DNA of 64,000 bases from Eubacterium sp. (GTDB taxonomy: Bacteria; Bacillota; Clostridia; Lachnospirales; Lachnospiraceae). The stretch lies in contig JAFRNE010000005.1 in NCBI GenBank assembly GCA_017430325.1, forward strand, positions 1 to 64,000. The letters run 5' to 3'. Positions 36,305 to 52,193 of this stretch are shown piece by piece; position 1 is the first letter of the stretch, and each line of letters begins with the position of its first letter. A program made the position numbers and the translations under genes. The notes below the pieces were generated by a model. The model had not been told where the DNA came from, did not search any database, and saw only the letters and a program-made list of their open reading frames with translations.

Positions 36305-39300
36305 TTATCTGTTCCTGCGTTCTTTACTTTTCTTCTGTAATGCAAAATACACTGCTGCAAGTCCCGAGTCGATCATCAGAAGGAATATCAAAAGAACATT
36401 TGTATCATCACCTGTCTTTACCTCTGATAATCCATCCTCGCTCTTTGAGGAGCTATCGTCGGCCGGCTTGACATCTGCCGGTTTTACCGAAGCATCGTCT
36501 GCATCTGTTTTATCAACATAGGCAAGTGCATATGTTGAAAATCTGTCAGTCGTGAACCTGATAAAGTTTCCTTCCTGCTTTGAAGGAATGATCTCTCCAT
36601 CACCATCATGAACTCTTACGACATAGAACGTTCTTCCATCTTTTCTGAGAGATTCAGGAATCTCGATCGTTATATCTAAAGCTCCGTCCGTTTCGGTGAT
36701 CTTAACCTTGTCCTCACCGAATATCTGCTTGAAGAGGCTGACATCGAGATACCACCCTACCGTCAGTTCAGAACCTGTTTCATTGTTCTTGGCTTTCTCT
36801 TCGACTACAGCTTTGTCTTCTGCAGAAACCGTATCATTTATCGTCTTAACCTCAAGGAAGATCGATACGTTCTTACCTGTATCCAATGCTGACTGATCAT
36901 CGGCAGAAAGTTCTACCTTTGAAATAACAGCAGTTTCTTCCTCGTCCAGCTTACCCTTGCAGTCATTCTCTTCTGCAGGCTCTGTAACCTCAACCTCGCC
37001 CCTAGGAAGAATATTGAAGTTTACGGTTGTTTCGGCAATATTGTAATTACCGCCCTTAACATCACTTATGACTGCTGTTGCCTTTCCGGTCTCTACGTTA
37101 TCCTTGTATTTAACCGTATATTCTGAGGCCGGTATTATACCCTCGCCGTCCTTTACAACCAGCTCCGGTGATATCTCTTTGCCTGTATAATACTTATCCT
37201 CTATCTTGTCAACCGATGGTGTAACATCCTTTGCAGCTATGGTAAGTTTACCCTTATTATCGAAGGTAATATCGTAATTGGTATTCTTCTCCTCGCTGCT
37301 CTCTGCGGAAATGATATACTCTCCGGCATCTTCTCCGGCTTCTCTTGAAAGAGTAATACCTTCAAGAGCTTCCTCTCCGACAAGTCCGTCAGTTTTATAT
37401 GTGAACTCAGGATCTTTCTCGCCAAATATCTTGCTGCTGTCATCTGTTGTGACAGTCACAGCCTTTTTTGTTACCTCGAGCTTACCGTTTACATATTGTA
37501 TATCATAATTATCTGTAACAATCTCACCGTTTGGATCTGTAATAACAGCGTCTCCCGGAATATTATCGCTGCTTCCCGCATCAGTCTGACTTCCTGTTAC
37601 GGCAACACTTACGATACTGTCGCCCTCAGCAAGTTCACTGTTTGTGTAGGTATCACATGTCAGCTCTGTTCCGTCATAAACCTTCTCTGCATCGTCTGCT
37701 GTGATCTTGACAGCCTTCTTTGTAACTTTAAGCGTACCTGAAACATATCCTATATTATAGCAATATGTAACATTCTCACCGTTTGCATTTACGATGATCG
37801 CTTCACTTGAAATATTTTCACTTTCACCAACCCATGTCCGGCTTCCTGTTACAGTAACACTTTCGAAACTGTCTCCCTCGGCAAGTTCGCTGTTTGTGTA
37901 GGTATCACATGTCAGTTCTGTTCCGTCATAAACCTTTTCCGCATCGTCTGCAGTAATCTTTAAAGACTTCTGAGTGATCTCAAACTCTGCGATATCAGAA
38001 GCACCGACATAATTGGCTGTTTCAGGAATATTTGCCTTTACATACCATGTTCCGACAGTTACAGGAACAGTCTCCGTAAATTCTCCATCCTTTGAAGCAC
38101 CGTAGGTATACTGAACCGTATCAGCGCCAAATGTAACATTTTCAACTTCCGGAGCATTCGGAGTCTGACCATACTCCCAACCTTTTATCTTAACTGTAAC
38201 AGCATTGCTCTGTGCCTGCGTTACCTTAAGCGTTCCCTTGACTACCTCTACTTCATAGTTAGTGTCCTTGGTTCCATCGTTAAAGGTATATGTAAATACA
38301 TTCTCACTATCACCTGCATCGGTCTGTGATCCGGTCACATTATAGGAAGCTCCCTGACCTTCAACAAATCCTAAGGCTTCAACTGTGCTGTTTGTAAGCG
38401 GTGTACCGTCATATTCCCTTTCAGCCGATCCTGATGTAAGAGTAACCGCCCTCCTGCCTATCGTATAATCCTTCGTGCATGAGCCGGTGTAATTGGTATT
38501 TTCCCCGGCTGTAACAGTCATAGTATAAGTTCCGGCATCCGTTTTCATGTTACCGGTGAATGTGCAGGAATCTTTCGCATCAAGCTGATAGTTCGGTCCT
38601 TTATCGATAACGATAAGGACTCCTGCAACACCCTGAGTCTGTTCACTTCCGTTGTAGGTCAGTTCATCAGTAAGAACAACATCTGCATTTGAAATATCTC
38701 TCTTCTTAATAGTCACCGGCACGGATAAAGCAGCGGTATTATTGTGATTGTCATCACCCGTAACCTTATACCATACATAATAGGTTCCTGCATTAAGTCC
38801 CTCAGGGAGGTTATCACTATCATATGTGAATGCGTCATCCTGAGGTGCGCTGTCTGTTGTCGTAACGGCATATGACAGTGTTCCGTGTTCGGTAGATCCT
38901 GCCGAAATGAGCCCCTGACTGAATCCGTTATATGTCAGATCGTTTGCTGTCGGCGGAGTGACAGTAGGATCAACCTTATTTATTGTGAGCCTGCCCTCAG
39001 CGTAGGTTATTTCGTAGCACCCCGTTACATCTGTTTCGCCTTTTTTGATCGTGGCTTCACTCGGAGTTACCGTACCGGATGTTGTAGCATTTTCTGTACT
39101 TGCTGTCAGAGATATGCCTGCCAACGAATCACCCTCAGCCAGAGATGATGTCTCTGCTTCTGATATATCGTTTTTGATCTGATCACCATAATTGATCGTC
39201 TGTTGTTTTGCTGTTATCGTTACAGCCTTCTTATTTATCGTAAAACTATTCGTACCTTCTGCGCCTGCATAATTACCGGTTGCCGGTATTTCGGCCTTTA

Positions 39301-41701
39301 TCCAATATGGTCCTGCATAGGAAGGAACTCCTCCCTCCGAAGCAGCGCCGTCAGCCGCTTTAGTCATCTCTGTGCATAACTCGTCTGTATAATATGTATA
39401 CTGAACTGTATCAGCACCGAAATCTGCTGTTACAGAAGGCTGCTTGGCTGCGTCCCCGTATGTCCAGTTCTCAATATTTACAGCAGTTACCTCATTTGCT
39501 GCCTGTGTAACCTCAAATGAATCCGGAGCACTGGTTGCCGCCTTGTGATTTGCAGTTTCTGCGACCACTGCATACATATAATAAGTTCCTGCACTAAGTG
39601 TGTTTCCGTTAATACCTGTCCACTCTGTACCTCCGGTATTACTGTCAGTTGTATTATAATAATATGTAACTGCTCCGTTTCCGCTATTCCCGGAAATCTC
39701 CGGTGCAGGAACAACTTCGGTTCCGTATGTATAATCTGCCATGCTGACAACCGGTGTGATAGCGGCCCTATCTACTGTCAGTGTATATGACGCCGTATTA
39801 TCACCGGATTCATAGTAATACCTTGTTCCATCCACCGCTGTGGCAGTTATTACAGCTCCACCTGCCCCTACGATCGTGACTTCACCATTATCGTCTACCG
39901 TTGCAACATGGGTATTGCTGCTGACATAGCTGACTGCCCCGTCACCTGTATTGGTCAACTTATTTGTAAAGTCATCTCCGAAAGCTATCTTCACCGATGA
40001 GGTTGGGTAGCTTATCTCTGCCGGAGCTTTGACTACGGTTACGGTTGCCGCTGCTGAAGCAGTAGCAGCTTTCTTGTTTTTGTCATCCTTCTTTGTCGCC
40101 GTAACTATACAATAATAATAGTGCTCTCCGATATCCAAACCCTTAGGGATACTATACGTTGCATCGGTTGCGCCATTTATAAGAATACCATCTTCATTAC
40201 TATCTGCAGTATTGGAATACCATTGATAGGTTAGATCATATTGTGCTCCGGAATCCGGTGTTGCCACCACACTCAGCTTTCCGGCATCTTCTGCATAACC
40301 ATATTCAAGACTTTTATCTTCCGGTCCATTCACAGTCGGCGGCTTGGCAGGATTATTTACCCATTCGGCATAAAGAGTCAGACTCGCATTATTGTCCGCA
40401 GCATAAGTTGCACCTGCATCATAATGCGTTCCGTTTCCGTCAGCCTGTGTATTCCATCCGTTAAAGCCGAGCCCTTCTCCTCTTGTCAGATTACCGGTAT
40501 TCGTTGCAAGCGTAAGCGCCTGATTTAAAAATTTAGCCTGAACATTAGGGACAGTTCCGCCTGTAGCACCATTTTTATCATAACTTACTCTATATATGGT
40601 AGTCGATTTATACTTGACATTTTCATTTGCCAGACCGTCCTGATATACGCTGAATTCAAGGAAATATCCTGAAACAGTCTGTGCTGGCTGGAAATCATTA
40701 AACTTTGCTTTTCCACTGTATGATGCAACTGTGGAGCACTCACCGCCACTATTATTAGGCTCACCAGAATTCCAAAGCTCTGTTGGAACAGCCTCGCCCA
40801 TTTCAGGTCCGCAAGCCCAGTAAAACTCATTTCCATAGCCACCACTATTGCTGGTCTGGGACCAGTAATAAGCACCGTCTGTGCCCGCTATTTTGTACAT
40901 ATCGCCAACTTTTTGCTTATTAATGGATGTTATGTTCTCATAATTTGAAGGCGACATACGTGAATCTTTTACCTGCGAATAGCTGGTTGCATCCATATCT
41001 GTAGTATAACTTAAGGATGTGGCCGCTATCCAGCCTCCGTTGGTATTACCCGGATTCGTACTTGTATAAAATTCAAAGAGGAGCTCTGCCTCTTCTGACG
41101 TCGTTACTGTAGCAAGATATCCCTTAAAGCCCCCCAGGGTATCTGTGGCTGTAACTGCATCATGAAAGGCACCTATCCATGTTTTTGTATTAGTGACATA
41201 TTTATAGATATGCGCTTCACCATTATTACCCATTATACCAAATGTAGCATCATCACTGCTTACTTCGATCGTAGTATCACCATCCGTTACCGCAATGTTT
41301 ACAGATGTGGTAGAGGCAGAAAACTTAATCTGTTGAAGCATATCACTTACAGTTTCTTTTGATACTTTAGGATCATACAACACAAGCGCCGCGTCCTTTT
41401 TCTTGCTGACTTTGGTTGTAGCATCTACCGCAGGAAGAGTAATCTCACCTCCGATTGTTCCTATCAAAACCATAGAAACATTTCCTTCTACAGTACTAAC
41501 GGCATTTTTTGCGGCAGTATCATCTATACTTAAGGTACCATCACTGTTTGTCACCCATTTTCCGGTGTCATTTTTAGCTGATGTTCCTCCTTCTGCGCTG
41601 GTTTTTATACTCATACACGGCACAAGCCCCAGTGTCATTACAACGGCTACCGCCAACGCCATGATCCTCTTTAACAAATTTCTTTTTCCTTTCGTATTCA
41701 T
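36305..41701 (-). CDS. Giant cell-wall-anchored adhesin with C-type-lectin-like domain
   Basis: The protein of 1798 residues has a signal peptide at 1-37 and a C-type-lectin-like domain at ~155-355. The lectin domain has TWIGAFHD, Trp/Gly-rich core strands, two Cys, the EPN sugar-site motif in WNSGEPNNSGGE, and FNDF in the place of WND. Next are an InlB-type repeat (~367-450, FNGWNTQADGNGTHYDAGATY), an Ig/PKD-like domain (~452-548), a BIG2-like domain (~557-625) and about ten MBG/YDG-type beta repeats (~640-1500). Two of these repeats are near-identical, 252 bp apart. A wall-proximal domain (~1590-1735), a KTGDDTN sorting motif, a membrane helix and a basic tail end the protein. It should sit on the cell wall and bind a sugar. 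It is a separate transcript with a leader terminator. Confidence 0.9.
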   Translation of the reverse strand: MNTKGKRNLLKRIMALAVAVVMTLGLVPCMSIKTSAEGGTSAKNDTGKWVTNSDGTLSIDDTAAKNAVSTVEGNVSMVLIGTIGGEITLPAVDATTKVSKKKDAALVLYDPKVSKETVSDMLQQIKFSASTTSVNIAVTDGDTTIEVSSDDATFGIMGNNGEAHIYKYVTNTKTWIGAFHDAVTATDTLGGFKGYLATVTTSEEAELLFEFYTSTNPGNTNGGWIAATSLSYTTDMDATSYSQVKDSRMSPSNYENITSINKQKVGDMYKIAGTDGAYYWSQTSNSGGYGNEFYWACGPEMGEAVPTELWNSGEPNNSGGECSTVASYSGKAKFNDFQPAQTVSGYFLEFSVYQDGLANENVKYKSTTIYRVSYDKNGATGGTVPNVQAKFLNQALTLATNTGNLTRGEGLGFNGWNTQADGNGTHYDAGATYAADNNASLTLYAEWVNNPAKPPTVNGPEDKSLEYGYAEDAGKLSVVATPDSGAQYDLTYQWYSNTADSNEDGILINGATDATYSIPKGLDIGEHYYYCIVTATKKDDKNKKAATASAAATVTVVKAPAEISYPTSSVKIAFGDDFTNKLTNTGDGAVSYVSSNTHVATVDDNGEVTIVGAGGAVITATAVDGTRYYYESGDNTASYTLTVDRAAITPVVSMADYTYGTEVVPAPEISGNSGNGAVTYYYNTTDSNTGGTEWTGINGNTLSAGTYYMYAVVAETANHKAATSAPDSFEVTQAANEVTAVNIENWTYGDAAKQPSVTADFGADTVQYTYYTDELCTEMTKAADGAASEGGVPSYAGPYWIKAEIPATGNYAGAEGTNSFTINKKAVTITAKQQTINYGDQIKNDISEAETSSLAEGDSLAGISLTASTENATTSGTVTPSEATIKKGETDVTGCYEITYAEGRLTINKVDPTVTPPTANDLTYNGFSQGLISAGSTEHGTLSYAVTTTDSAPQDDAFTYDSDNLPEGLNAGTYYVWYKVTGDDNHNNTAALSVPVTIKKRDISNADVVLTDELTYNGSEQTQGVAGVLIVIDKGPNYQLDAKDSCTFTGNMKTDAGTYTMTVTAGENTNYTGSCTKDYTIGRRAVTLTSGSAEREYDGTPLTNSTVEALGFVEGQGASYNVTGSQTDAGDSENVFTYTFNDGTKDTNYEVEVVKGTLKVTQAQSNAVTVKIKGWEYGQTPNAPEVENVTFGADTVQYTYGASKDGEFTETVPVTVGTWYVKANIPETANYVGASDIAEFEITQKSLKITADDAEKVYDGTELTCDTYTNSELAEGDSFESVTVTGSRTWVGESENISSEAIIVNANGENVTYCYNIGYVSGTLKVTKKAVKITADDAEKVYDGTELTCDTYTNSELAEGDSIVSVAVTGSQTDAGSSDNIPGDAVITDPNGEIVTDNYDIQYVNGKLEVTKKAVTVTTDDSSKIFGEKDPEFTYKTDGLVGEEALEGITLSREAGEDAGEYIISAESSEEKNTNYDITFDNKGKLTIAAKDVTPSVDKIEDKYYTGKEISPELVVKDGEGIIPASEYTVKYKDNVETGKATAVISDVKGGNYNIAETTVNFNILPRGEVEVTEPAEENDCKGKLDEEETAVISKVELSADDQSALDTGKNVSIFLEVKTINDTVSAEDKAVVEEKAKNNETGSELTVGWYLDVSLFKQIFGEDKVKITETDGALDITIEIPESLRKDGRTFYVVRVHDGDGEIIPSKQEGNFIRFTTDRFSTYALAYVDKTDADDASVKPADVKPADDSSSKSEDGLSEVKTGDDTNVLLIFLLMIDSGLAAVYFALQKKSKERRNR
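37641..37960. repeat. Internal direct repeat inside the lectin adhesin gene
   Basis: The segments starting at 37641 and 37893 are nearly identical over about 65 bases and encode the same strand (KVYDGTELTCDTYTNSEL) in successive 84-residue repeats. This suggests recent repeat copying within the gene. Confidence 0.85.
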
Positions 41702-42169: not shown

Positions 42170-42367
42170 TCACTCAATTATCTCAAGTCTTACATTCTTT
42201 ATGTGAAGAGTTGCCGTTGAGCCCTGATTACCCATGTTAAATTCAACACGGCCCATGTCATCATATGTTGAACCGCAGAAATAATCAAGTCCGTGCAAAA
42301 TATTTTTTGTTGTCTGCTTGCTGACAGCTGTTTCACCGAGGCTGACATTTTCACTGCCCCTTCCCTT
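42170..42367 (-). pseudogene. Remnant of a carbohydrate-binding module
   Basis: The minus strand has an open frame of 65 codons with no start codon or ribosome site, bounded upstream by an in-frame TAG. It reads like the C-terminal end of a CBM4/9-type beta sandwich (DYFCGSTYDDMGRVEFNMGN followed by STATLHIKNVRLEIIE). The rest of the presumed glycoside hydrolase is missing. It lies in a 756-base gap that otherwise holds the pilus operon terminator, the adhesin promoter and leader, and AT-rich sequence. Confidence 0.6.
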
Positions 42368-42413: not shown

Positions 42414-42445
42414 GAGGCAGCCGGTCGTTACCGACCGGCTGCCTC
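42414..42445 (-). terminator. Hairpin ending the pilus operon
   Basis: A perfect 14-bp stem (42414-42427 with 42432-42445) with a TTAC loop lies 12 bases after the tip adhesin stop codon. The T-tail on the minus strand is poor, so it may act with help or mainly protect the mRNA end. Confidence 0.65.
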
Positions 42446-42457
42446 TTAATGTTTAAG

Positions 42458-45400
42458 CTATTCTTCGTTATATCTTCTGTGTCTTCCCCTCAGGAACAGG
42501 AACATCGCTCCGATAAGAAGCATTCCTACCACTAAAAGCGTAGGTATATGTGACTCTATACCTGTGGGAATGACTGCTTCACGGGTGTTTGTGAACTCAA
42601 TAGTTGTATCATCCGTAAACTCGAATGTTTTCGAGCTTCTTTCTTCCATGTCACCATTTCCAAGCTTTACGGTAGCCTGATAATCAAGACTGTTCTCACT
42701 TACCGTTACAGTTTTCCCTGCAGGGATGCATATCACAGCTGTGTCACCGTGCTTCATCGTGAAGTTACCACCGGACTTGATCACCGAAGCATCACCATTA
42801 TTTTTGATGAACTCATACTCGGTGGTACCATCATCCTCAGCTATCGCAAAGGTAAAGGTGAACTCCTGGTCCTTGTTGCCATGATTTCCGGTAACGGTCT
42901 TTGTTATGGTCAGATAATTACCGTCCACCATTTTATTGTAAATATCAACAAATGCTGCGACTTCGTCCTCACCTTTTTTCCATTTAGCCCAGTTCAGATC
43001 ATCTTCATCTGTATTTCCCCAGGAAGTTGTCCCATCATCATACAGAAGTATTACAGAATCATCCTCACTGATCTTAAACTTAAGCGTCTTCTGAAGACCG
43101 ATATAATGATCAGGCGCAGCCGTCTCTGTAAGTGTATATATCTCGTCACGTTCAAAACCATATAACAGCTTGATGAGACCATCCCCGTCAGATGTAAACT
43201 CGCCGATCACATCACCGTTACTGTCATTAAGTGTAAACACACCATCCTGAAGAGGAACCTCACTGTCCCACTTGAAGAGTCTGAGAGCAATACACTCCTT
43301 ACGTGTATTTGTTATAGTATCAGTCCTGGTAGTACCGGAATTTTCACCCTCCTCGTAAGAAACCTCGTATGTATACTCCTTCACGGCCGTTGTTTCATCG
43401 ACAGGGGTCGCATCGGACGTTCTTGTCGCATTAACCTTTAGGCTTTCTCCACTCTCAAGAGGAGTAACAGCGGTATAACCCGAAACCTTTCCATCCTTTG
43501 CAATAGTTATATCGCCTGTAAGAGTAACTTCTCTAACCACGTATCCCTCAAAGGTAGTCCTTGCATCCTTAAGTGAAGTCCAGAAATAGTAAACAGATGT
43601 TTCAGGAGACACTATAGCTCTGACCGAATCATCAATAAGCTGATCATCGGCATAAACCGCTACATAAACAGGATCATGAGACACCGTTGCATCAAGGTCG
43701 CTCCACTCCTTTTTAACTGTGAGACCATATCCCTTTTTATTGATAACATCAAGCAGAGGATTAACTTCCTTAACAACCTTACCGACATTATCTTCTGAAT
43801 TGAGATAATCATTATCATATGACGCGATCGTTGATGACTCTCCCCCGGTAGTGATTATCTCGCCTTCAACCATCTCATATCTGTCAAGACCATAACCGCT
43901 CTTTATATCCTCGGTAACCATAAATACTGTACCGATCGGAAGGCCCGGAACACATATCGTATAGCCCGACGGTATTCCGGAAATTGCGCCAAAGCCCGAG
44001 GTTGTGAAGCATATATCATTATCATAATCAATACCATCAAAATCACCATCTTTGATGGCTGCGATATTTTCACGGCTATACTCTATATCTGTCTTATTGA
44101 AGCCTCCATTTTCACGATCACGCTTACAAATATACCTTTTGTCCCCTTCGATCTTAACTACGTAATAGTTATACATATTGACACGTTTAAGATCATCAAT
44201 ATCCTCAACATCTACCGATGAAAGGTAAAGTCTGAAACTGAAGGTTGCATCATCGTTCGTTATCTCATGGTCATCCTCATCAACAAGGCGCTTAGTTATG
44301 AAGAGATCCTTGATAACATTATCATTCATAACGTTTTCAAATGAAATAACCGGTCTTTCCTCCGCTGTCACGGACGAAGAAGAATAGCACTTATATTCGC
44401 CTATAGTGTCTACTTTATCCGCTTCCTTACCATTGATCAGAACATTTCCGTATACTGTAGAGTCTACCGCACACTCAACGATCCTGTAGCTTATGGTTTC
44501 ATCCGGAAATGATATTTCCGCATTTTTAGTCGGATTTAGGAAATATACATTATGGAAGGCCTGAGCTTCAGAAACTCCCGGAGGTCTGTACATTTCAACA
44601 AAGTTTACCGGATCCGTTGAATCCTGGTAGCTTACCCCGATAAAATCTTCATCATTACCAAGAAGTAATTCTATCGTTTCCGGTGGAGCATCAGGGTCAT
44701 CAGGATCCACAGGATAATCAGGATCCTCAGGTTTAGGATAATCAGGATTAGGTATCGTATAATATATCTGGAACGGATACTCAACAAAATCAGTATCAAG
44801 CAATGCCGAATCACCACCTGTAACTGTCTTAGAAACAACTACACGTCCCGGCTTAACAGAAGCAAGGTTAAAGCGCATATAAAGGTTGGATGCACCGGCA
44901 CCTCTTTCAGTATAAAAAATCCGCATCGTATGTAGAGAATAATCCGCAAAAATATCCTCACAGCCATAGGTTTCACCATCCTTTGGCTGGAAATACTGAA
45001 GAAGGTATTCCTGAATCTCACTATCCGGAGGAACAGCGTCCGCACCATGCTCCAACTTATAGCGTTCAGTATAATTATCAATAAATATTTGTTTCAGAGT
45101 TGTGGTTTCGCCATTAACATAAACTACACCGGTTCTGAAATTGACATTCCCTTCCAGAGCCGAATGAACACCTCCAAGATCTATGACAAGCTCACCGTCA
45201 ACATATAGCCAGAAATCATCATCACCGGTGAACTCGAAGATGATATCATGCCCCCATGCATCCAGACCGCTGACAGTCTGAATAAATGATGCCTCCAGTT
45301 CCATTCCTAATTGATAATTTGGAGAACTGATATTGTACAAGCTTTCGTATTTACGTGGATCATCTTCAGAAAGCTCTCCCATAGTTCCTTGCTCATTTGT

Positions 45401-48283
45401 AAGCGCACTGTAGGTGTTCTTATGAACAGTCGATAAAGGTTTCCCTACTATATTATCATATGGGAAGAACTGTCCATGTTTGCGAGTACAAGAATTGCCT
45501 GTGGTCGTTCCAAGCTCTCTGTAAACCGTAAACTCTATAGCAGAATGTTCTTCACCCTTAGTATCAGTATATGTTGTTGCTTCCTTAAGCGTTTTTCCGT
45601 CATCTTTACGAAGTGTCGCAAAATTTTGACAACTGTCGAACTCAAAGTATCCGCTGGATTCATAGATGCTATCTATGAACAGTCCGTTTACCTCTGTCGT
45701 AGTTTCATTGTTAAACAGAATTGCAAGTGACTCTCCCTTATATGATTCTTCTGACGAATAATCTTGAAGGAATGTCGGATAACCATCATCTCCAAGATTC
45801 GTTGACAAAAGTCCCTGTGTAGGAGGTTTCCCGGCCCCATCATTATCAGGCCTTGGTAAACATTTATTCATAAAACTGGCGCCATTAAAATCCGACATCT
45901 TAATAGTGATACCATAATCATAATTATTTATGGTATCAACCTTATGCAGATCGCCACTCAGATTGAGAGGCTCAATCGTAGCAAAATAAAACGGAAGCGA
46001 TTTCGACTGTATGCACGGAACAAGCATAGTATTATCTTCATTCGGCATAAGACCAATATATGAATAATAATCTTCATCCCAAGCTATCAGATCACTGTAG
46101 AAGTCACCATTACGACGTCCCGGCATATTTATACCGATGGGATCATCGGAAAGAGCCTGCGCTGTGCTGAGCTGCGGAGCTATATATTTCTGTGAGTGTG
46201 CGTTATAGAGTTCATAATAATAGTTTATTTCCTTCGTAACTGCATCACGATACTCGGTGAAGGTCCACTCAGGATAACTTGTTCCATCCCCTAGCCAGTA
46301 AATCTTATCACCGCTGGCATAACATTTAAAAAGCGCCCCGTTCTGATCAACTGCATATATATCGTATCTCGTATCATCACTATTCCAGATACGTGTATAA
46401 ACAATAACCTTTGCTCCATCCGGAACCTCGGAAACACTCACTCTTTCTGCGGAATACATAATAAGATCCGAATCTGAAAGCTGAGCATAATCGATGAGCC
46501 TCAGATATGAATTGTTTGATGAGTTATCATCCGACATATAAAAATACGAATTTGCAACCTGTCCATCATCATCTATTGCAAAATTCACATATTTACTGTC
46601 ATATTCAAGCTGAATCCTGCTGTTTTCTCCTATATTCACCTTGAAGGCTGTCGCATCATCCAAGTTATCTACAAGCACCAGACTATCTTCACTTACTGCA
46701 AGATACTTTGTTCCATTGTCTGTATCAGCAGACAGCTTGTAATTACCATCTCCTGTTTTATTAAAGGTCCATCTTGTAACTTCACTATCCTCATCTACAT
46801 AAACAGTTTTGCCATATTGCGTTGCCGTTTCATGAGTTACGACTTCGATAAGTGCATCAACACTGTCACCGGCCATAAGAGCGTAGCCATATACACCGCC
46901 CGTATAATTCATCAGACCACAAGTCAAACCATCAAGGTCAAGTTCAACATCGTTATTTGGAACAAGAGTCAGGGAGAAAAGTATGTTTTTTTCGAAATCC
47001 TCAGTTTGTTCTTCATAACGGTTTTTACCCACATTATAATCACCATTTGAAAACTGTCTATTGGTTTTTACATCTGTACCATCAAAATACCAATAGTTTT
47101 GTTTATCACTTGTTAACACTGCAGGAGTTACACTTATATAGAAAGCATCGCCATAATCTGATTTCTTAACTGCAAAAGCATAATAAACTGATTCTTCATC
47201 AACATATGAGGATGAGTAAATCCCACTAGAATTCAGACTCTTTGTGTACAAATAAACTTTTTCATGGTTATTGTCATAAAAAAATATATGGAATTTATTC
47301 TCCGTTCCTTCTATCTTTTCAAAATAATAAACTGCTGCACTGTCAATATCTCCCGTTGTTGTTATCTTATTTGATGACAAAGTGCTTGTCAGATATCTGG
47401 CCATTCCTTTATCTGTGACTCTGTCATTATATATATAGAATCCCTGACCATCTACAATATCATCAAGTGAATCTGCATTAGAGGTCGCATAAAGATCCAC
47501 TATCTCATATATACTGAATCCTGTTGCATCAAAAGAAACACTGCCATCGCTGACAATGATATCTGTGATCTCTTCGAGCTCCCCGTCATCCTTTATATGA
47601 TAAACCTTGATTGCTCTGTCAGTTCGGATCCTGTCATCAGTGATCTCAACCTTGACCGGTCGCTTCTCTGTCGGCTGATACTCTGTCTTGCCAACCTTGA
47701 TCGTTATATCGTAGGCGGCAATTGTAGTATATTTGTCCTCCTGATCCTCTTCACCAACGATAGCTGACTTATTATTCTCTTCCTCTTCGCCAACGATTTC
47801 AGACTTATCTTCTTCATCAGAATCGATCTGGGCATCTCCCAGCGCTGCAGTATTCTCCGTGTATTCAATATCTCCATCTGCATAGCTGTCTGCCGCAGCA
47901 TCAGCATCACCCGATGTGGCAATGTCTTCATCCACGTCAGTTCCATCAACAAGACCGGTTGCAGCATCAGCTCCATCAACAAGACCGGTTGCAGCATCCC
48001 CATCATCCGAGCTATCATCCTCATCGATAAAATCAGCGGTCACATCAACAACCTCAACCGACGCATTCTTAGGCATCATTCCTTCGAGAGCAACTGTCTT
48101 GTCCGGGTCCTCCTCGTCAGGATGCACCTCAAAGCTCTTGTGAGAATATCCGTCGTCTGTTTCCGTTGCAAATATATTAAGACCTGCAGGTACCATAGAG
48201 GCAACCAGAAGAATAAGGCCCATGATAAAGCATATCATTCTCTTTTTTGCTGTTCCGTTATTTCTTGCAAAATCATACCTCAT
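42458..48283 (-). CDS. Giant pilus tip adhesin with fibro-slime domain and IPTG sorting signal
   Basis: The protein of about 1941 residues has a signal peptide (~17-40, ICFIMGLILLVASMVPAG), an acidic Asp/Glu-rich region (~60-170) with a repeated DAATGLVDG, a long unique region, and a fibro-slime/PA14-like domain near residues 950-1140 (IFEFTGDDDFWLYVDGELVI and DLGGVHSALEG). Several Cna_B/SpaA and FctA-like domains follow (~1150-1890, e.g. GVFTLNDSNGDVIGEF, KTVTGNHGNKDQEF). It ends in the IPTG sorting motif (1905-1908), a membrane helix and a basic tail. The start at 48283 has AAAGGAGG; a longer frame to 48364 has no support. It is the last gene of the pilus operon, the place of the tip adhesin in known loci. 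The ligand is unknown. Confidence 0.9.
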   Translation of the reverse strand: MRYDFARNNGTAKKRMICFIMGLILLVASMVPAGLNIFATETDDGYSHKSFEVHPDEEDPDKTVALEGMMPKNASVEVVDVTADFIDEDDSSDDGDAATGLVDGADAATGLVDGTDVDEDIATSGDADAAADSYADGDIEYTENTAALGDAQIDSDEEDKSEIVGEEEENNKSAIVGEEDQEDKYTTIAAYDITIKVGKTEYQPTEKRPVKVEITDDRIRTDRAIKVYHIKDDGELEEITDIIVSDGSVSFDATGFSIYEIVDLYATSNADSLDDIVDGQGFYIYNDRVTDKGMARYLTSTLSSNKITTTGDIDSAAVYYFEKIEGTENKFHIFFYDNNHEKVYLYTKSLNSSGIYSSSYVDEESVYYAFAVKKSDYGDAFYISVTPAVLTSDKQNYWYFDGTDVKTNRQFSNGDYNVGKNRYEEQTEDFEKNILFSLTLVPNNDVELDLDGLTCGLMNYTGGVYGYALMAGDSVDALIEVVTHETATQYGKTVYVDEDSEVTRWTFNKTGDGNYKLSADTDNGTKYLAVSEDSLVLVDNLDDATAFKVNIGENSRIQLEYDSKYVNFAIDDDGQVANSYFYMSDDNSSNNSYLRLIDYAQLSDSDLIMYSAERVSVSEVPDGAKVIVYTRIWNSDDTRYDIYAVDQNGALFKCYASGDKIYWLGDGTSYPEWTFTEYRDAVTKEINYYYELYNAHSQKYIAPQLSTAQALSDDPIGINMPGRRNGDFYSDLIAWDEDYYSYIGLMPNEDNTMLVPCIQSKSLPFYFATIEPLNLSGDLHKVDTINNYDYGITIKMSDFNGASFMNKCLPRPDNDGAGKPPTQGLLSTNLGDDGYPTFLQDYSSEESYKGESLAILFNNETTTEVNGLFIDSIYESSGYFEFDSCQNFATLRKDDGKTLKEATTYTDTKGEEHSAIEFTVYRELGTTTGNSCTRKHGQFFPYDNIVGKPLSTVHKNTYSALTNEQGTMGELSEDDPRKYESLYNISSPNYQLGMELEASFIQTVSGLDAWGHDIIFEFTGDDDFWLYVDGELVIDLGGVHSALEGNVNFRTGVVYVNGETTTLKQIFIDNYTERYKLEHGADAVPPDSEIQEYLLQYFQPKDGETYGCEDIFADYSLHTMRIFYTERGAGASNLYMRFNLASVKPGRVVVSKTVTGGDSALLDTDFVEYPFQIYYTIPNPDYPKPEDPDYPVDPDDPDAPPETIELLLGNDEDFIGVSYQDSTDPVNFVEMYRPPGVSEAQAFHNVYFLNPTKNAEISFPDETISYRIVECAVDSTVYGNVLINGKEADKVDTIGEYKCYSSSSVTAEERPVISFENVMNDNVIKDLFITKRLVDEDDHEITNDDATFSFRLYLSSVDVEDIDDLKRVNMYNYYVVKIEGDKRYICKRDRENGGFNKTDIEYSRENIAAIKDGDFDGIDYDNDICFTTSGFGAISGIPSGYTICVPGLPIGTVFMVTEDIKSGYGLDRYEMVEGEIITTGGESSTIASYDNDYLNSEDNVGKVVKEVNPLLDVINKKGYGLTVKKEWSDLDATVSHDPVYVAVYADDQLIDDSVRAIVSPETSVYYFWTSLKDARTTFEGYVVREVTLTGDITIAKDGKVSGYTAVTPLESGESLKVNATRTSDATPVDETTAVKEYTYEVSYEEGENSGTTRTDTITNTRKECIALRLFKWDSEVPLQDGVFTLNDSNGDVIGEFTSDGDGLIKLLYGFERDEIYTLTETAAPDHYIGLQKTLKFKISEDDSVILLYDDGTTSWGNTDEDDLNWAKWKKGEDEVAAFVDIYNKMVDGNYLTITKTVTGNHGNKDQEFTFTFAIAEDDGTTEYEFIKNNGDASVIKSGGNFTMKHGDTAVICIPAGKTVTVSENSLDYQATVKLGNGDMEERSSKTFEFTDDTTIEFTNTREAVIPTGIESHIPTLLVVGMLLIGAMFLFLRGRHRRYNEE
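47943..48002. repeat. 30-bp direct repeat in the tip adhesin gene
   Basis: Two 30-base copies (from 47943 and 47973) encode the duplicated DAATGLVDG in the acidic region. Confidence 0.85.
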
Positions 48284-48494
48284 TCCTGTTACCTCCTTTC
48301 CTGTATTTTCTGTCTGTTTCGTATATTTCTTCTTTATCTTCTTTATCAAATCGGGTGTCCACAACCATCATCCTATCCGACTGTTTGCAGACGCCTGTCT
48401 CTTATCATATCTTCTTATCCGGTCTTTTCAAACACCCGTACCATACTATATAATCTGACCCGGTTATTTCTGAGCCGCCCGTTTCGTAAAGGTA

Positions 48495-49421
48495 TCACTC
48501 TTCCTCATCACGCTCTCTTTTTTTCTTAAGATATCTCTTTACGAAAATCAGTATGATCACAGCAAGAAGTGAACCTGTCATTATACCCACTATCACGCCG
48601 ACCGGTGTTTTATCTCCTGTTTTCGTGGTATTACTCTCCTCGGTTGTCGAAGTATTATCAACCACCGTTTCTTTTGTATCTACGGTCACATCTTCAGATA
48701 TTCCCTCCGTTGTATTATCGGAGGTTGCCTCTGTTTTTTCAGTTGTATTTTCGGTAGTTTTCTCAGTCGTTTTTTCGGTCGTTTTCTCGGTCGTTTCCTC
48801 TGTCGTAACTTCGGTTACCTTCTCTGTATCCTCCGATGTTATCTCAGAACTGCCCTCCGTTTCCTCCTGCTCGTTTACGAACATGATGACGGTCGGCTTC
48901 TTGTCGGTATCCTTGTAATTAACCGACATATAGTACATCAGCTCCTCTTCGCTTTCCTGTGCAGGTCGTGTCTCGTCGGATCCCGAATCCTTGTTCATGA
49001 CATTTATATGTATCTCATACTCAGTTTCATCGTAGATAACGCCTTCACCATCGCCCTTTTTCTGAAATACAAAATATGTATAATCTCCGGGCTCCGTAAA
49101 TGTTATGAAGAAGCTCCCCTCACCGTCCGTAACGATGATACTGTCCTTATCCGGGATCGGATAGTCCTTTTCAGCCGCGGAGATACTGATATTATATGTA
49201 TCGTCGGAAAGCTTGCTGTTTCCCAGGCATTCAAAGGCGATCTCTACCGTGATCGGCTTATATACACCCTCTGCATAAACATACCCATCCGGTGCTACAG
49301 AAGCATATTTATCTCCGGAAAAAGTGCAAAAGAGACCACATACCAGCATGGCAGGCAAAGCCATCCCGGCTGCGATCCTTCTTAAGGTTTTTGATCTTTT
49401 TTTACCTTTTCTCAGTATCAT
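48495..49421 (-). CDS. Minor (basal) pilin with Thr-rich stalk and KTGD sorting signal
   Basis: The protein of 308 residues has a signal peptide (basic RKGKKRSKTLRR then a hydrophobic core), one FctA/Spy0128-like pilin domain (~35-180, GDYTYFVFQKKGDGEGVIYD and ETEYEIHINV), a Thr/Glu-rich stalk (~190-260) built from TEKT repeats, a TKTGDKTP sorting motif (267-270) and a membrane helix with a strongly charged tail. The Thr-rich wall-spanning stalk fits a base pilin that anchors the pilus. The start at 49421 (MILRKG) has GAGGCGG upstream, 14 bases after the sortase stop. Confidence 0.87.
   Translation of the reverse strand: MILRKGKKRSKTLRRIAAGMALPAMLVCGLFCTFSGDKYASVAPDGYVYAEGVYKPITVEIAFECLGNSKLSDDTYNISISAAEKDYPIPDKDSIIVTDGEGSFFITFTEPGDYTYFVFQKKGDGEGVIYDETEYEIHINVMNKDSGSDETRPAQESEEELMYYMSVNYKDTDKKPTVIMFVNEQEETEGSSEITSEDTEKVTEVTTEETTEKTTEKTTEKTTENTTEKTEATSDNTTEGISEDVTVDTKETVVDNTSTTEESNTTKTGDKTPVGVIVGIMTGSLLAVIILIFVKRYLKKKRERDEEE
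48736..48807. repeat. 12-bp tandem repeat encoding the Thr-rich stalk
   Basis: Six consecutive 12-base units of the form TTTTCGGTCGTT (with changes) encode repeats of the TEKT type in the minor pilin stalk. The length of such an array can change by slippage. Confidence 0.85.
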
Positions 49422-49435
49422 CTTCCGCCTCTTTA

Positions 49436-50143
49436 TCAGTAAATATAGCAAAATACTATCAATCGATTCTGGGACACAGGCTCCGTGCAGGTTGAAAGCG
49501 CGAGTATCCTGCCACTCGCAGGAACAGACTCATCATATACTCTCGCTCTCTCCTTTATCAGGCTCCCGATATCCTTCGTATCAGGCTTCAGGAATTCGCT
49601 GTCATCAAATACATTTACCTTGGCTGCGGCAAAAACCTTCACCTGCAGCGCCTTCACATCTGTTCGGCCCACAAGTAGAGTTCCCTCACTGTGGGACTTA
49701 AGATATTTCTCTTCCAGATAATCATCAAGCGCCCCGAACATAACCTTGTATTCCATATGGTGTCCGTAGAGGATCGAATACTCATCCGTAAAATCCCCGC
49801 TGTTTCTGCTGTCCAGAAATATGCTTCCCGACAACGCGTACTCACCATAAGGATTGATGTTCAGATATTTTGAATTATCTTCACCCTGCATGACAGGATA
49901 ATCGATATTTGTATCATCAATAGTTATCCAGGCAACCATATCCTCAGTTATCGGAATATCGTCGGATATGTTCTGCCCCTCCTCCGGTTTGTATTTACGG
50001 TAGCTGTCATCGCTGGCGTTACTGAAGACATACCAGCTGTCATACAGACCGTAGATAACGACCAGAAGGATAAGCGTAAATATAAACAGCATGAACCTCT
50101 CATAAAGGATATTCATTTTGATCCAGAATTTTTTCATGTTCAT
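49436..50143 (-). CDS. Class B-type pilus sortase
   Basis: This membrane-anchored transpeptidase of 235 residues would cleave the IPTG/KTGD sorting motifs and join pilin subunits. The N-terminal membrane helix is at ~17-34. Sequence blocks match class B sortases: IDYPVMQGEDNSKYLN, LSGSIFLDSRN, YSILYGHHME (His128) and LSTCTEPVSQNR (Cys219 and Arg227), so the catalytic triad is complete. No lid-bearing class C features are visible. FCT-3-type streptococcal islands also use a class B-like pilus sortase. It lies between the backbone pilin and minor pilin genes. Confidence 0.93.
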   Translation of the reverse strand: MNMKKFWIKMNILYERFMLFIFTLILLVVIYGLYDSWYVFSNASDDSYRKYKPEEGQNISDDIPITEDMVAWITIDDTNIDYPVMQGEDNSKYLNINPYGEYALSGSIFLDSRNSGDFTDEYSILYGHHMEYKVMFGALDDYLEEKYLKSHSEGTLLVGRTDVKALQVKVFAAAKVNVFDDSEFLKPDTKDIGSLIKERARVYDESVPASGRILALSTCTEPVSQNRLIVFCYIY

Positions 50144-50174
50144 GCATCTTACCTTTTAAATGCCTTGGAGCAGA

Positions 50175-51440
50175 TCACTCCTCGTCGTATTTCTTCCTTG
50201 AACGGACCGCAAAGAATACGATACCTGCAACAACCACAACACCGATGATGATCCATGGTGTAGCCGAAAGAAGTATTCCCGTCGGGATAACGCCGTCCTT
50301 ATTATTCTTGAAACCGACAACCTTGTCACCGGTCAGAGTTCCTTCAACATCGTCCATTGCGTTAAAACTGCTGTATGAAACTGTATTTGTTGATGATGAA
50401 GCTGTGGATGTATACTTCTCTGCTTCCTCTGCAACTTTATATCCTGCTCCTGAAGGGATACCTTCGATCTTGATATACTGTCCATGCTTCAGATAAACAT
50501 CCAGCCCACTCTTAAGTGTACTTCCTTTAATCTGAACGCCATCAGCACTCGTGTTGGCATCTGAAGGCTGTGTCATTGTTTCATATGATGTAGAGTCCGT
50601 CTTAGTAGGTGTTGTATCATATCCTGCAGTAACCACAGTATAATAGTTGTCATCCGCAACAACGTCTCCTGTAAGAGTTATAGTAAACTTAAAATACTTA
50701 TCCTTCGAACCCTGGTTACCCGTAACCTGCTTACCTGCTGTAAGGCTGTAGGTTGTATACGAATTGACATATTTATCCGACTTTTCTGCGCCTGTAGGTT
50801 CTGCTCCGTTTGCCGGTACAGTAGCAGAACCGGAAGCAGTAGTCTTTGGTGCTTTTGTTACAGTACCGCTGTACATAACATATCCCTGAACCTCAAGCGT
50901 GCCATTATCATCCTGAATATATACATCCAGTGTTCTGGTGGCCACACTATCATTTGTAAATACGCTTCCCGGTGCCTGAGCCGTCTCTGTAATAATATAT
51001 CTGTATACGCCCGGGTGAGTAAATGAAACCTCAGTCAGATCAACAGCGACATCATTTTTTGCATACTTTTTATCCGTACTATTAGTTATACCGTCATCAG
51101 CTGCACCGTCTGTTGTAGCTTGCCCTGCTGTAAAGGTGGTTTTGCCTTCCGTTCCGATAACTATCTTATCGGCATCCGGACCCGCAAATACTTCAAGCTC
51201 TCCGGTACTCTCAGGAGTAACAGTGCCACCTGCAGCAATACTGAATTCAAACTCGGCTGCCGGAATACTCGCATTCTTTTCAACAACAAGGTACTTATAG
51301 AATGTTATTTGAGTACCTTTTATCGCTGCATAAACCGATGTTTCTGTTTCATCCGGTTCTGCACATACCGGAACTGCCATAAGCGCCACGAGAAGCACCG
51401 CCGTAATAAACGAAACCATCCTTCTTACACTTTTCTTCAT
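50175..51440 (-). CDS. Major (backbone) pilin, FctA/Spy0128-like
   Basis: The protein of 421 residues has a clear signal peptide (RRMVSFITAVLLVALMAVPV, cleavage after VCA). The first pilin domain (~35-215) has the streptococcal pilin isopeptide-linkage pattern (ITFYKYLVVEKNASIPAAEF and GVYRYIITETAQ). A second similar domain (~225-380) reads AGKQVTGNQGSKDKYFKFTI. The sorting signal IPTG (385-388), a membrane helix and the RSRKKYDEE tail complete it. Internal Lys-Asn isopeptide bonds are expected from the family. The C-terminal domain resembles that of the tip adhesin (KxVTGNxGxKDxxF). The ribosome site GGTGGAGG is strong. Confidence 0.93.
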   Translation of the reverse strand: MKKSVRRMVSFITAVLLVALMAVPVCAEPDETETSVYAAIKGTQITFYKYLVVEKNASIPAAEFEFSIAAGGTVTPESTGELEVFAGPDADKIVIGTEGKTTFTAGQATTDGAADDGITNSTDKKYAKNDVAVDLTEVSFTHPGVYRYIITETAQAPGSVFTNDSVATRTLDVYIQDDNGTLEVQGYVMYSGTVTKAPKTTASGSATVPANGAEPTGAEKSDKYVNSYTTYSLTAGKQVTGNQGSKDKYFKFTITLTGDVVADDNYYTVVTAGYDTTPTKTDSTSYETMTQPSDANTSADGVQIKGSTLKSGLDVYLKHGQYIKIEGIPSGAGYKVAEEAEKYTSTASSSTNTVSYSSFNAMDDVEGTLTGDKVVGFKNNKDGVIPTGILLSATPWIIIGVVVVAGIVFFAVRSRKKYDEE

Positions 51441-51514
51441 AATCCTCCACCTTTCTCTGAAAAAGCTATATTTTCACTTAAGAATATTTAAGGAGATCAG
51501 CCGGCTTCCTTAGA

Positions 51515-52099
51515 TCATATACCCCTTCTCCTCATTATAAAAACTACTTTTCCTTTAATACTTTCTTTTGAGATCGCGCCGTAGGAACGGCTGTCCTTCA
51601 CATCCGGTCTGTAATCATTCAGTATGAAATACGAATCCTTCGGTACCTCATACGGAAAGCCGATAAGAGCACCTTCGCCTGTCGTAGGATATACCGCATC
51701 CTCAAATACACCATATCCGTTCACCGTGAGACTCTCTTCGCTGAGATCCACTACATTTCCGGGCAGGGCGACTATCCTTCCGAATCGTATCTCTCCGTCC
51801 TGAAGATAAGCCACCTCGTCACCTGTGTGAAGCTCGCCCCACCTGTAAATGATGCAAAGATCACCGTCCTTCAGCATAGGGTATCCAGAGTTGCCATGAA
51901 CAATATAGATACCTATAACAAACGAACAAAGCGCCCATATAATAAGCGCTGTTACTCCTATCTTTATAAAGAACTCTGCTGCATATCTACCGGCTGATTT
52001 CTTCTTTTTCTTCCCGCTCTTCTCCAACGATTCATTTTCTGAAGGCGGTGTTAATGTCAGATCATCCTCCGGCAATCCTGATTTTTCCAACTTATCCAT
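51515..52099 (-). CDS. Signal-peptidase-I-like pilus assembly protein lacking the catalytic lysine
   Basis: The protein of 194 residues has one membrane helix (~41-66) and the S26 peptidase fold outside. Box B reads GNSGYPMLKDGD with Ser71 in the nucleophile place. Box D reads EIRFGRIVALPGN, where catalytic Lys (KR in active enzymes) is Gly107. Box E is NDYRPDVKDSRSYGAIS. Without the lysine a Ser-Lys dyad cannot form, so it probably does not cleave signal peptides. The streptococcal pilus protein SipA/LepA is likewise catalytically altered and acts in pilus polymerisation. It is the first gene of the operon, before the backbone pilin. Confidence 0.85.
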   Translation of the reverse strand: MDKLEKSGLPEDDLTLTPPSENESLEKSGKKKKKSAGRYAAEFFIKIGVTALIIWALCSFVIGIYIVHGNSGYPMLKDGDLCIIYRWGELHTGDEVAYLQDGEIRFGRIVALPGNVVDLSEESLTVNGYGVFEDAVYPTTGEGALIGFPYEVPKDSYFILNDYRPDVKDSRSYGAISKESIKGKVVFIMRRRGI

Positions 52100-52164
52100 A
52101 ACATCCTGCCTATGTGATTTTCTCTTCTCACAAGTCGATAAATTATGTTGACATATATGCTTTT

Positions 52165-52193
52165 TTTATACTATAAATAGCCTTAAAAGTCAA
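52165..52193 (-). promoter_or_regulatory. Promoter of the pilus operon
   Basis: The minus strand reads TTGACT (52188-52193), 17 bases, TATAAA (52165-52170). The leader to the first gene is about 60 bases, with no obvious riboswitch. Confidence 0.75.

What the first reader, a model, noticed from the sequence alone, without database searches (positions are those of the whole stretch)
42414..52193. Complete sortase-assembled pilus operon in FCT-like order
One promoter drives: signal-peptidase-like protein, FctA/Spy0128-type backbone pilin, class B sortase, Thr-stalk minor pilin and a ~1940-residue tip adhesin. The gene content parallels streptococcal FCT islands but in a gut/rumen-type anaerobe, with IPTG and KTGD sorting motifs in place of LPXTG. 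This is a coherent, little-studied attachment machine.
Basis: partly seen in the sequence, partly recalled or inferred. Interest (0 to 1): 0.7.

Follow-up and report, generated by a model that had tools for sequence, protein, structure and literature searches.

The report
FCT-type class-B-sortase pilus operon
This rumen-type bacterium carries a complete five-gene kit for building a covalently linked hair-like pilus of the kind known from Streptococcus pyogenes and Clostridium perfringens; the machine is a known type in a new lineage, notable for its giant, swappable, probably sugar-binding tip and for an anchor signal that matches the one used by the host's other surface proteins.

Summary
Window 52099-42458 (minus strand) encodes, in order: a SipA-like pseudo-signal-peptidase, an FctA/Spy0128-fold backbone pilin, a class B sortase closest in the PDB to Spy0129, an FctB-type base pilin and a ~1941-aa tip protein. 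All isopeptide triads (K49/E152/N226, K237/E338/N379), the polymerisation lysine (K220) and the sortase His/Cys/Arg are invariant in relatives. The gene set recurs in dozens of rumen Lachnospiraceae, Ruminococcus and Saccharofermentans genomes.

xPTG marks the polymerised subunits (backbone 80/82; GAS FCT-2 uses VVPTG/EVPTG). KTGD marks only the base pilin and also ends this genome's other surface proteins, so it is the anchoring code, probably read by the genome's only other sortase.

The operon is an accessory insertion between trpS and a hydrolase gene; the site is empty (~330 bp) in two relatives. Two unrelated tip types occur with the same machinery, sharing only a ~170-aa C-terminal docking domain. 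This tip has predicted tandem beta-trefoils plus a PA14/fibro-slime domain, so it probably binds glycans.

Verdict: a real, intact FCT-type pilus operon; a new member of a known kind (C. perfringens VR-10B is a demonstrated clostridial case).

The parts
52165..52193 (-). Promoter-like site TTGACT-17 bp-TATAAA (putative operon promoter)
   Evidence: Sequence; identical in nearest relative L053. Not found by the strict scan, because the second hexamer ends in A. Transcription not shown.
51515..52099 (-). SipA-like pseudo-signal-peptidase (pilus assembly factor). SPase catalytic Lys replaced by Gly107; Ser71 position is S/T/A in relatives
   Evidence: best PDB SipA 4n31 8e-24; alignment A3
50175..51440 (-). 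FctA/Spy0128-type backbone pilin. Isopeptide triads K49/E152/N226 and K237/E338/N379; polymerisation Lys K220; VIPTG sorting signal (T387)
   Evidence: Alignment A2, all these residues invariant in 18; profile search; AF2 model pLDDT 82, Foldseek top hits Spy0128 3gle/3b2m
49436..50143 (-). Pilus-specific class B sortase; catalytic His128, Cys219, Arg227
   Evidence: PF04203 and TIGR03064 152.1 bits vs cutoff 153.75; best PDB Spy0129 3psq; catalytic residues invariant in 17
48495..49421 (-). FctB-type base pilin: one Ig-like domain lacking the isopeptide Lys (C75) and Glu (Q), invariant Lys185 before F-x-N as linkage candidate, Thr/Glu-rich stalk, KTGD sorting signal (48612-48623). Residues numbered from the ORF start at 49451
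   Evidence: PF12892, TIGR03786; FctB 8k6t 4.4e-11 and 3klq 9.6e-11; A5
42458..48283 (-). Giant tip protein (1941 aa) ending in a VIPTG sorting signal
   Evidence: conserved start and Shine-Dalgarno site
45995..47467 (-). Tip head, part 1 (approximate limits): tandem beta-trefoil-like domains, ricin-B/HA33/fascin type
   Evidence: AF2 model pLDDT 82; Foldseek hits to multi-trefoil proteins; RicinB_lectin_2 3.8e-4, below the Pfam cut-off
45080..45250 (-). Tip head, part 2: core of the fibro-slime/PA14-like domain, containing the invariant GDDDFWLYVD..D.GG motif
   Evidence: TIGR02148 47.4 bits vs cutoff 45; PF07691 24.2 vs 24 on the fragment; invariant columns in 36 sequences
42461..42913 (-). 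Tip C-terminal docking module: DUF7601 domain and VIPTG sorting signal, the only part shared with the unrelated type B tips
   Evidence: PF24547 7.4e-17; tip clustering
42414..42445 (.). Strong 14-bp hairpin after TIP (possible operon end)
   Evidence: a similar GCCGGTCG/CGACCGGC hairpin follows TIP in L053
36201..52271 (.). Whole insertion between trpS and the alpha/beta-hydrolase gene: pilus operon, CBM-like remnant and a separate KTGD surface protein
   Evidence: The site is empty (323 and 340 bp) in L191 and L193, and holds the pilus operon alone (10.2 kb) in L053

Best explanation
The operon encodes a covalent, sortase-assembled pilus of the SipA/class-B-sortase (FCT-2/3/4) type. Proposed steps: (1) The tip, backbone and base pilins are exported and held in the membrane by their C-terminal signals. 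(2) The pilus class B sortase (Cys219) cleaves the xPTG signals of tip and backbone between T and G and joins each Thr (T387 in the backbone) to K220 of the next backbone subunit, so the chain grows from its base. The catalytically dead SipA-like protein is needed as a chaperone or scaffold. (3) Growth stops when the backbone Thr is joined to the base pilin, probably at Lys185. (4) The base pilin's KTGD signal is processed by the genome's other (housekeeping-like, class B) sortase and fixed to peptidoglycan, as for the other KTGD surface proteins. (5) Autocatalytic Lys-Asn isopeptide bonds harden both backbone domains. (6) The ~1900-aa tip displays beta-trefoils and a PA14/fibro-slime domain that probably bind glycans (plant cell wall, mucin or other microbes). 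Shown here: gene content, homology, conserved residues, fold of the backbone, two-code sorting pattern, insertion. Inferred: polymerisation, linkage positions, division of labour between the sortases, glycan binding.
For: Each part is closest in the PDB to its FCT counterpart: SipA, Spy0129, Spy0128 by fold, FctB among the best for the base pilin; the tip's last ~150 residues match pilus ancillary protein 1. All six isopeptide residues, K220 and T387 are invariant in 18 backbones. K237/E338/N379 line up with Spy0128 K179/E258/N303, and K220 lies 6 residues before N226, as K161 lies 7 before N168 (K161-T311 linkage from PMC7900414). Sorting code: backbone xPTG in 80 of 82 and tip in 35 of 46 (several of the others cut or misread); base pilin xPTG in 1 of 74 and TG[DEFGY] in 62 of 74. 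KTGD-type signals occur on other proteins of this genome. In other hosts the base signal resembles that of their other surface proteins: NPITGF with NPDTG and TPNTGF, VATGE with PATGE and PQTGE. The genome has only two sortases, both srtB-like.
Against: No expression, microscopy or biochemical data exist. The sortase scores 152.1, just under the TIGR03064 cutoff of 153.75, and its grouping with Spy0129 is weakly supported in the tree (80/59). No sequence of the C. perfringens relative was at hand to compare. The hairpin after TIP lacks a T-tract on the operon strand, and a promoter-like site precedes TIP, so the five genes may not be one transcript. The glycan-binding role rests on fold similarity alone; the Pfam trefoil hit is below its cut-off.
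Confidence: 0.9

Rival explanations
1. The class B sortase only anchors each of the three proteins to the wall individually (as S. aureus or B. anthracis SrtB do), and no polymer is made.
For: The enzyme is class B, and most characterised class B sortases anchor single proteins (PMC3019223). Its closest named model is the general srtB family.
Against: It comes with a SipA homologue, an FctA-fold backbone with an invariant candidate nucleophile Lys, and an FctB-type base pilin whose signal differs from that of the other two. Individually anchored proteins would not need two codes. Spy0129 and C. perfringens SrtB1 are class B sortases of pili.
Confidence: 0.06
2. The pilus sortase does everything, anchoring included, and KTGD is simply a second motif that it reads.
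For: No test separates the substrates here. The C. perfringens authors leave open which sortase adds and anchors the base pilin.
Against: KTGD is the signal of unrelated surface proteins in this genome. About half of the near-complete species of the genus lack the pilus sortase while most keep another sortase (by my count 17 of 32 have the pilus type). In other hosts the base signal resembles that of the host's other proteins.
Confidence: 0.2
3. The operon is a decaying or silent island and makes no pilus in this organism.
For: The insertion also holds a gene remnant at about 42185-42350 (sequence); pilus carriage in the genus is patchy.
Against: All five frames are intact, and the catalytic and isopeptide residues are conserved here and in species whose sortases are only 57-78% identical.
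Confidence: 0.07
4. The large protein is a wall-attached or free-standing fibrillar adhesin rather than a pilus tip.
For: It is ~1900 aa, perhaps long enough to reach beyond the wall by itself.
Against: It carries the backbone-type xPTG signal and the same C-terminal DUF7601 domain as the backbone pilin, not the KTGD anchoring signal. The two unrelated tip types share just this module.
Confidence: 0.12

Closest known systems
Streptococcus pyogenes FCT-2/FCT-3 pilus (Cpa, SipA/LepA, FctA/Spy0128, SrtC1/Spy0129 class B, FctB)
   Same: Same four core parts, in the order I know for FCT-2 (sipA-fctA-srt-fctB); V(V/I)PTG-type polymerisation signals with a different, housekeeping-type signal on FctB; dead SipA with Lys to Gly; two-domain FctA with two Lys-Asn bonds; FctB without an intramolecular bond.
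   Different: Tip gene last rather than first, and the head is not Cpa-like (no thioester domain recognised; beta-trefoils plus PA14/fibro-slime instead). Base signal is KTGD, not LPXTG. Stalk is Thr/Glu-rich, not proline-rich. The Ser position of SipA is S/T/A, not Asp. No FCT regulator genes were seen next to it.
Clostridium perfringens VR-10B 'NE pilus' (CnaA, FimA, FimB, signal peptidase, class B sortase; PMC8088525)
   [quoted passage not shown] pili shown by ladder and immunogold; base pilin with a SrtB-type signal; a second SrtB present.
   [quoted passage not shown] Sequences could not be compared here, so kinship beyond architecture is untested.
Class C sortase pili (pneumococcal PI-1, Lactobacillus SpaCBA)
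   Same: Covalent backbone/tip/base logic.
   Different: The polymerase there is class C; here it is srtB-like and no class C model matches.

Membership tests
FCT-2/3/4-type (SipA + class B sortase) pilus | Class B polymerase of Spy0129 type | tested here: met
   Best PDB match Spy0129 3.4e-37; tree nearest to Spy0129 but weakly supported
FCT-2/3/4-type (SipA + class B sortase) pilus | SipA: SPase I fold without the catalytic dyad | tested here: met
   SipA 4n31 8e-24; Lys position Gly in 16 of 17 and Ala in one; Ser position variable S/T/A
FCT-2/3/4-type (SipA + class B sortase) pilus | Two-domain FctA backbone with Lys-Glu-Asn triads, polymerisation Lys and xPTG signal | tested here: met
   All invariant in 18 sequences; Foldseek to Spy0128 3.2e-18
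FCT-2/3/4-type (SipA + class B sortase) pilus | FctB base pilin with a different, anchoring-type sorting signal | tested here: met
   FctB3 8k6t 4.4e-11; KTGD and not xPTG; no isopeptide Lys/Glu
FCT-2/3/4-type (SipA + class B sortase) pilus | Cpa-like thioester tip adhesin (accessory feature), tip gene first | tested here: not met
   No PDB match by sequence; no thioester family; head predicted as beta-trefoils; tip gene last. Only the C-terminal ~150 aa match pilus ancillary protein 1. The head type is not what makes the polymer.
FCT-2/3/4-type (SipA + class B sortase) pilus | Covalent high-molecular-weight polymers on the surface | not testable with these tools
   Needs expression, blots and microscopy
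Class B sortase (TIGR03064) | Score above the NCBIfam curated cutoff | tested here: inconclusive
   152.1 vs 153.75 bits, E 1.5e-44 over nearly the whole length
Class B sortase (TIGR03064) | Catalytic His, Cys, Arg | tested here: met
   H128, C219, R227 invariant in 17 sequences
Class C pilus sortase | C-terminal membrane anchor; class C model match | tested here: not met
   No class C model hit; the protein ends at residue 235, 8 residues after R227, so it has no C-terminal membrane helix
Clostridium perfringens VR-10B pilus | Sequence kinship of sortase and pilins | not tested
   Sequences not at hand; only architecture compared

The most novel reading that the evidence does not exclude
These are portable pilus islands of rumen clostridia built as interchangeable modules. 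A fixed polymerising core reads xPTG. The base pilin changes only its terminal signal to fit whatever anchoring code the host uses (KTGD, xATGE, NPxTGF). The adhesive head is exchanged wholesale, tandem-trefoil/PA14 heads for giant LRR/DUF285 heads, behind one common C-terminal docking domain, so that one attachment machine is retargeted between gut surfaces.
Probability: 0.5. Interest if true: 0.6.

Novelty: new member of a known kind. Interest (0 to 1): 0.42.

Why it matters
FCT-type pili are known as virulence factors of a few pathogens; finding the whole machine, residue for residue, in commensal gut anaerobes suggests that it is a general attachment tool of anaerobic Firmicutes. It gives non-pathogenic systems in which to ask why class B pilus sortases need a dead signal peptidase, how polymerisation is told apart from anchoring, and what giant tip proteins of rumen bacteria hold on to. 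The SipA comparison adds a concrete point: the Lys to Gly change is nearly fixed while the Ser position drifts, in keeping with a non-enzymatic role.

Tried and rejected
Rfam found nothing in the window. The tip has no PDB match by sequence. No plasmid-borne close relative of the sortase was found (all below 60% identity). Upstream sequences of more distant relatives do not align, so no conserved regulatory site could be drawn. No direct repeats were found within either short boundary stretch examined, so the insertion mechanism is unknown. Five literature searches for sortase pili in rumen or Lachnospiraceae bacteria listed nothing by title or abstract on this system; most subscription papers are not held. 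I considered and set aside single-protein anchoring, a class C system and a decayed island (see rivals).

Full report
WHAT IS THERE. On the minus strand, five intact genes follow each other: SIP 52099-51515, BB 51440-50175, SRT 50143-49436, MIN (ATG probably 49421) to 48495, and TIP to 42458. The long TIP frame opens at a TTG at 48364, but the start conserved in relatives is the ATG at 48283 behind a GGAAAGGAGG ribosome site, so the tip protein has 1941 residues. That a single promoter drives all five genes is plausible but not shown: the 211 bases between MIN and TIP hold another promoter-like site (48431-48404), and the end hairpin has its T-run on the other strand.

WHAT EACH PART IS. SIP is a signal-peptidase-I relative whose best solved relative is S. 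pyogenes SipA (4n31, 8e-24). In 17 sequences the catalytic Lys is Gly in 16 and Ala in one, and the catalytic Ser position is S, T or A, so it is a pseudo-enzyme, as SipA is (Asp48/Gly85 there; PMC4049620). BB is an FctA-type backbone: profile search and AlphaFold model both return S. pyogenes T-antigens and Spy0128 first. Invariant in 18 sequences are K49, E152, N226 and K237, E338, N379 (the two isopeptide triads), K220 (6 residues before N226; the Spy0128 linkage lysine K161 is 7 before N168) and T387 of the sorting signal. SRT is a class B sortase (TIGR03064 152.1 bits, cutoff 153.75) with Spy0129, the S. pyogenes pilus polymerase, as best solved relative (3.4e-37); its catalytic H128, C219 and R227 are invariant. 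MIN matches FctB (8k6t, 3klq, about 1e-10); like FctB it should lack an isopeptide bond (Lys replaced by the invariant C75, Glu by Gln), keeps a Lys (K185) before the last F-x-N strand, and has a Thr/Glu-rich stalk. TIP carries SpaA and DUF7601 domains towards its end and a fibro-slime/PA14 domain in the middle. A model of residues 300-1185 (pLDDT 82) is closest to tandem beta-trefoil proteins, such as fascin and HA33-type haemagglutinins, which points to sugar binding. That is an inference.

TWO SORTING CODES. Over 80 loci from named genomes, the backbone signal is xPTG in 80 of 82 and the tip signal in 35 of 46, while the base pilin is xPTG in 1 of 74 and TG followed by D, E, F, G or Y in 62 (automatic motif calls, some from cut genes). 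In this genome KTGD-type signals also end other surface proteins (EVKTGDD at 36305, QPKTGDD, SAKTGDN, SPKTGDD, SPATGDS). The genome, 99% complete, has only two sortases; the other one, L001, is srtB-like too. In other hosts the base pilin's signal resembles that of their other surface proteins: NPITGF in Ruminococcus FC2018 beside KNPDTG and TPNTGF, and xVATGE in Ruminococcaceae YRB3002 beside IPATGE and SPQTGE (small samples). The simplest reading is that xPTG means 'polymerise' and KTGD means 'anchor'. This is the logic of GAS, where FctA and Cpa have VVPTG and EVPTG, and FctB an LPXTG read by SrtA (PMC7900414).

DISTRIBUTION AND INSERTION. The same-genus loci repeat the order SIP-BB-SRT-MIN-TIP, most with different neighbours; 17 of 32 species at least 90% complete carry the pilus sortase (my count). 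The genus contains Eubacterium ruminantium FB3002 (L054 and L078 are the same contig). Named relatives are Lachnospiraceae, Ruminococcus, other Ruminococcaceae and Saccharofermentans, very often labelled rumen, omasum or other ruminant samples. In the window the operon, a gene remnant and a 1798-aa KTGD protein lie between trpS and an alpha/beta-hydrolase gene. In L191 and L193 these two genes are 323 and 340 bases apart with nothing between; L193 belongs to the E. ruminantium FB3002 genome (G027), which has its pilus operon elsewhere. In L053 (isolate C6A11) only the pilus operon (10.2 kb) lies there. No direct repeats were seen within the short boundary stretches.

EXCHANGEABLE TIPS. Tips fall into two groups without detectable full-length similarity: 42 loci with the type seen here, and 11 with a larger type (mostly 2,700-3,000 residues) carrying DUF285/LRR domains. 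Both groups occur in Lachnospiraceae and Ruminococcus. They share only about 170 residues at the C-terminus, the DUF7601 domain and xPTG signal, as expected of a docking module recognised by the polymerase. L064/L088 has its tip gene first, the FCT-2 order.

HOW IT PROBABLY WORKS. Tip first, then backbone subunits, are joined T387 to K220 by the pilus sortase with the SipA-like factor; the base pilin ends growth, and the second sortase fixes it to peptidoglycan by KTGD. Homology, residues, fold and signals are shown; polymerisation, bond positions, the split between sortases and sugar binding are inferred.

NOVELTY. The gene set and its logic are those of S. pyogenes FCT-2/3/4, and C. perfringens VR-10B is a demonstrated clostridial case (PMC8088525). 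I file it as a new member of a known kind. New here, as far as the held literature shows, are its spread in rumen clostridia, the host-matching base signal and the interchangeable giant tips.

Noticed in passing
window 36305-41701 (-): 1798-aa secreted protein with a C-type-lectin-like N-terminal region (by eye), MBG and Big_2 repeats and an EVKTGDD anchor, lying in the same insertion but absent from L053; probably an independent surface adhesin.
   Followed up: partly
window about 42185-42350 (-): Start-less remnant reading ...CGSTYDDMGRVEFNMGNQGSTATLHIKNVRLEIIE*, resembling the end of a carbohydrate-binding module, between the pilus operon and the KTGD protein.
   Followed up: no
L075 5197-13710 (G000:C4): 2837-aa protein with at least six DUF7601 repeats and a Thr stalk, ending TPVTGMFMM...KKKDNNRS, which fits neither the IPTG nor the KTGD signal.
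   Followed up: partly
window 48495-49421 (-), residue 75 of MIN: An invariant cysteine in 16 base pilins sits about where FctA has its isopeptide lysine; the role of an exported Cys here is unexplained.
   Followed up: no
L112, L117: Relatives with two backbone-like genes and order BB-BB-MIN-SIP-SRT, a variant layout of the island.
   Followed up: no
L082, L090, L093, L118, L120, L125, L131, L134, L137, L149, L156: Second, larger tip type with DUF285/LRR domains, in place of the trefoil/PA14 tip.
   Followed up: yes
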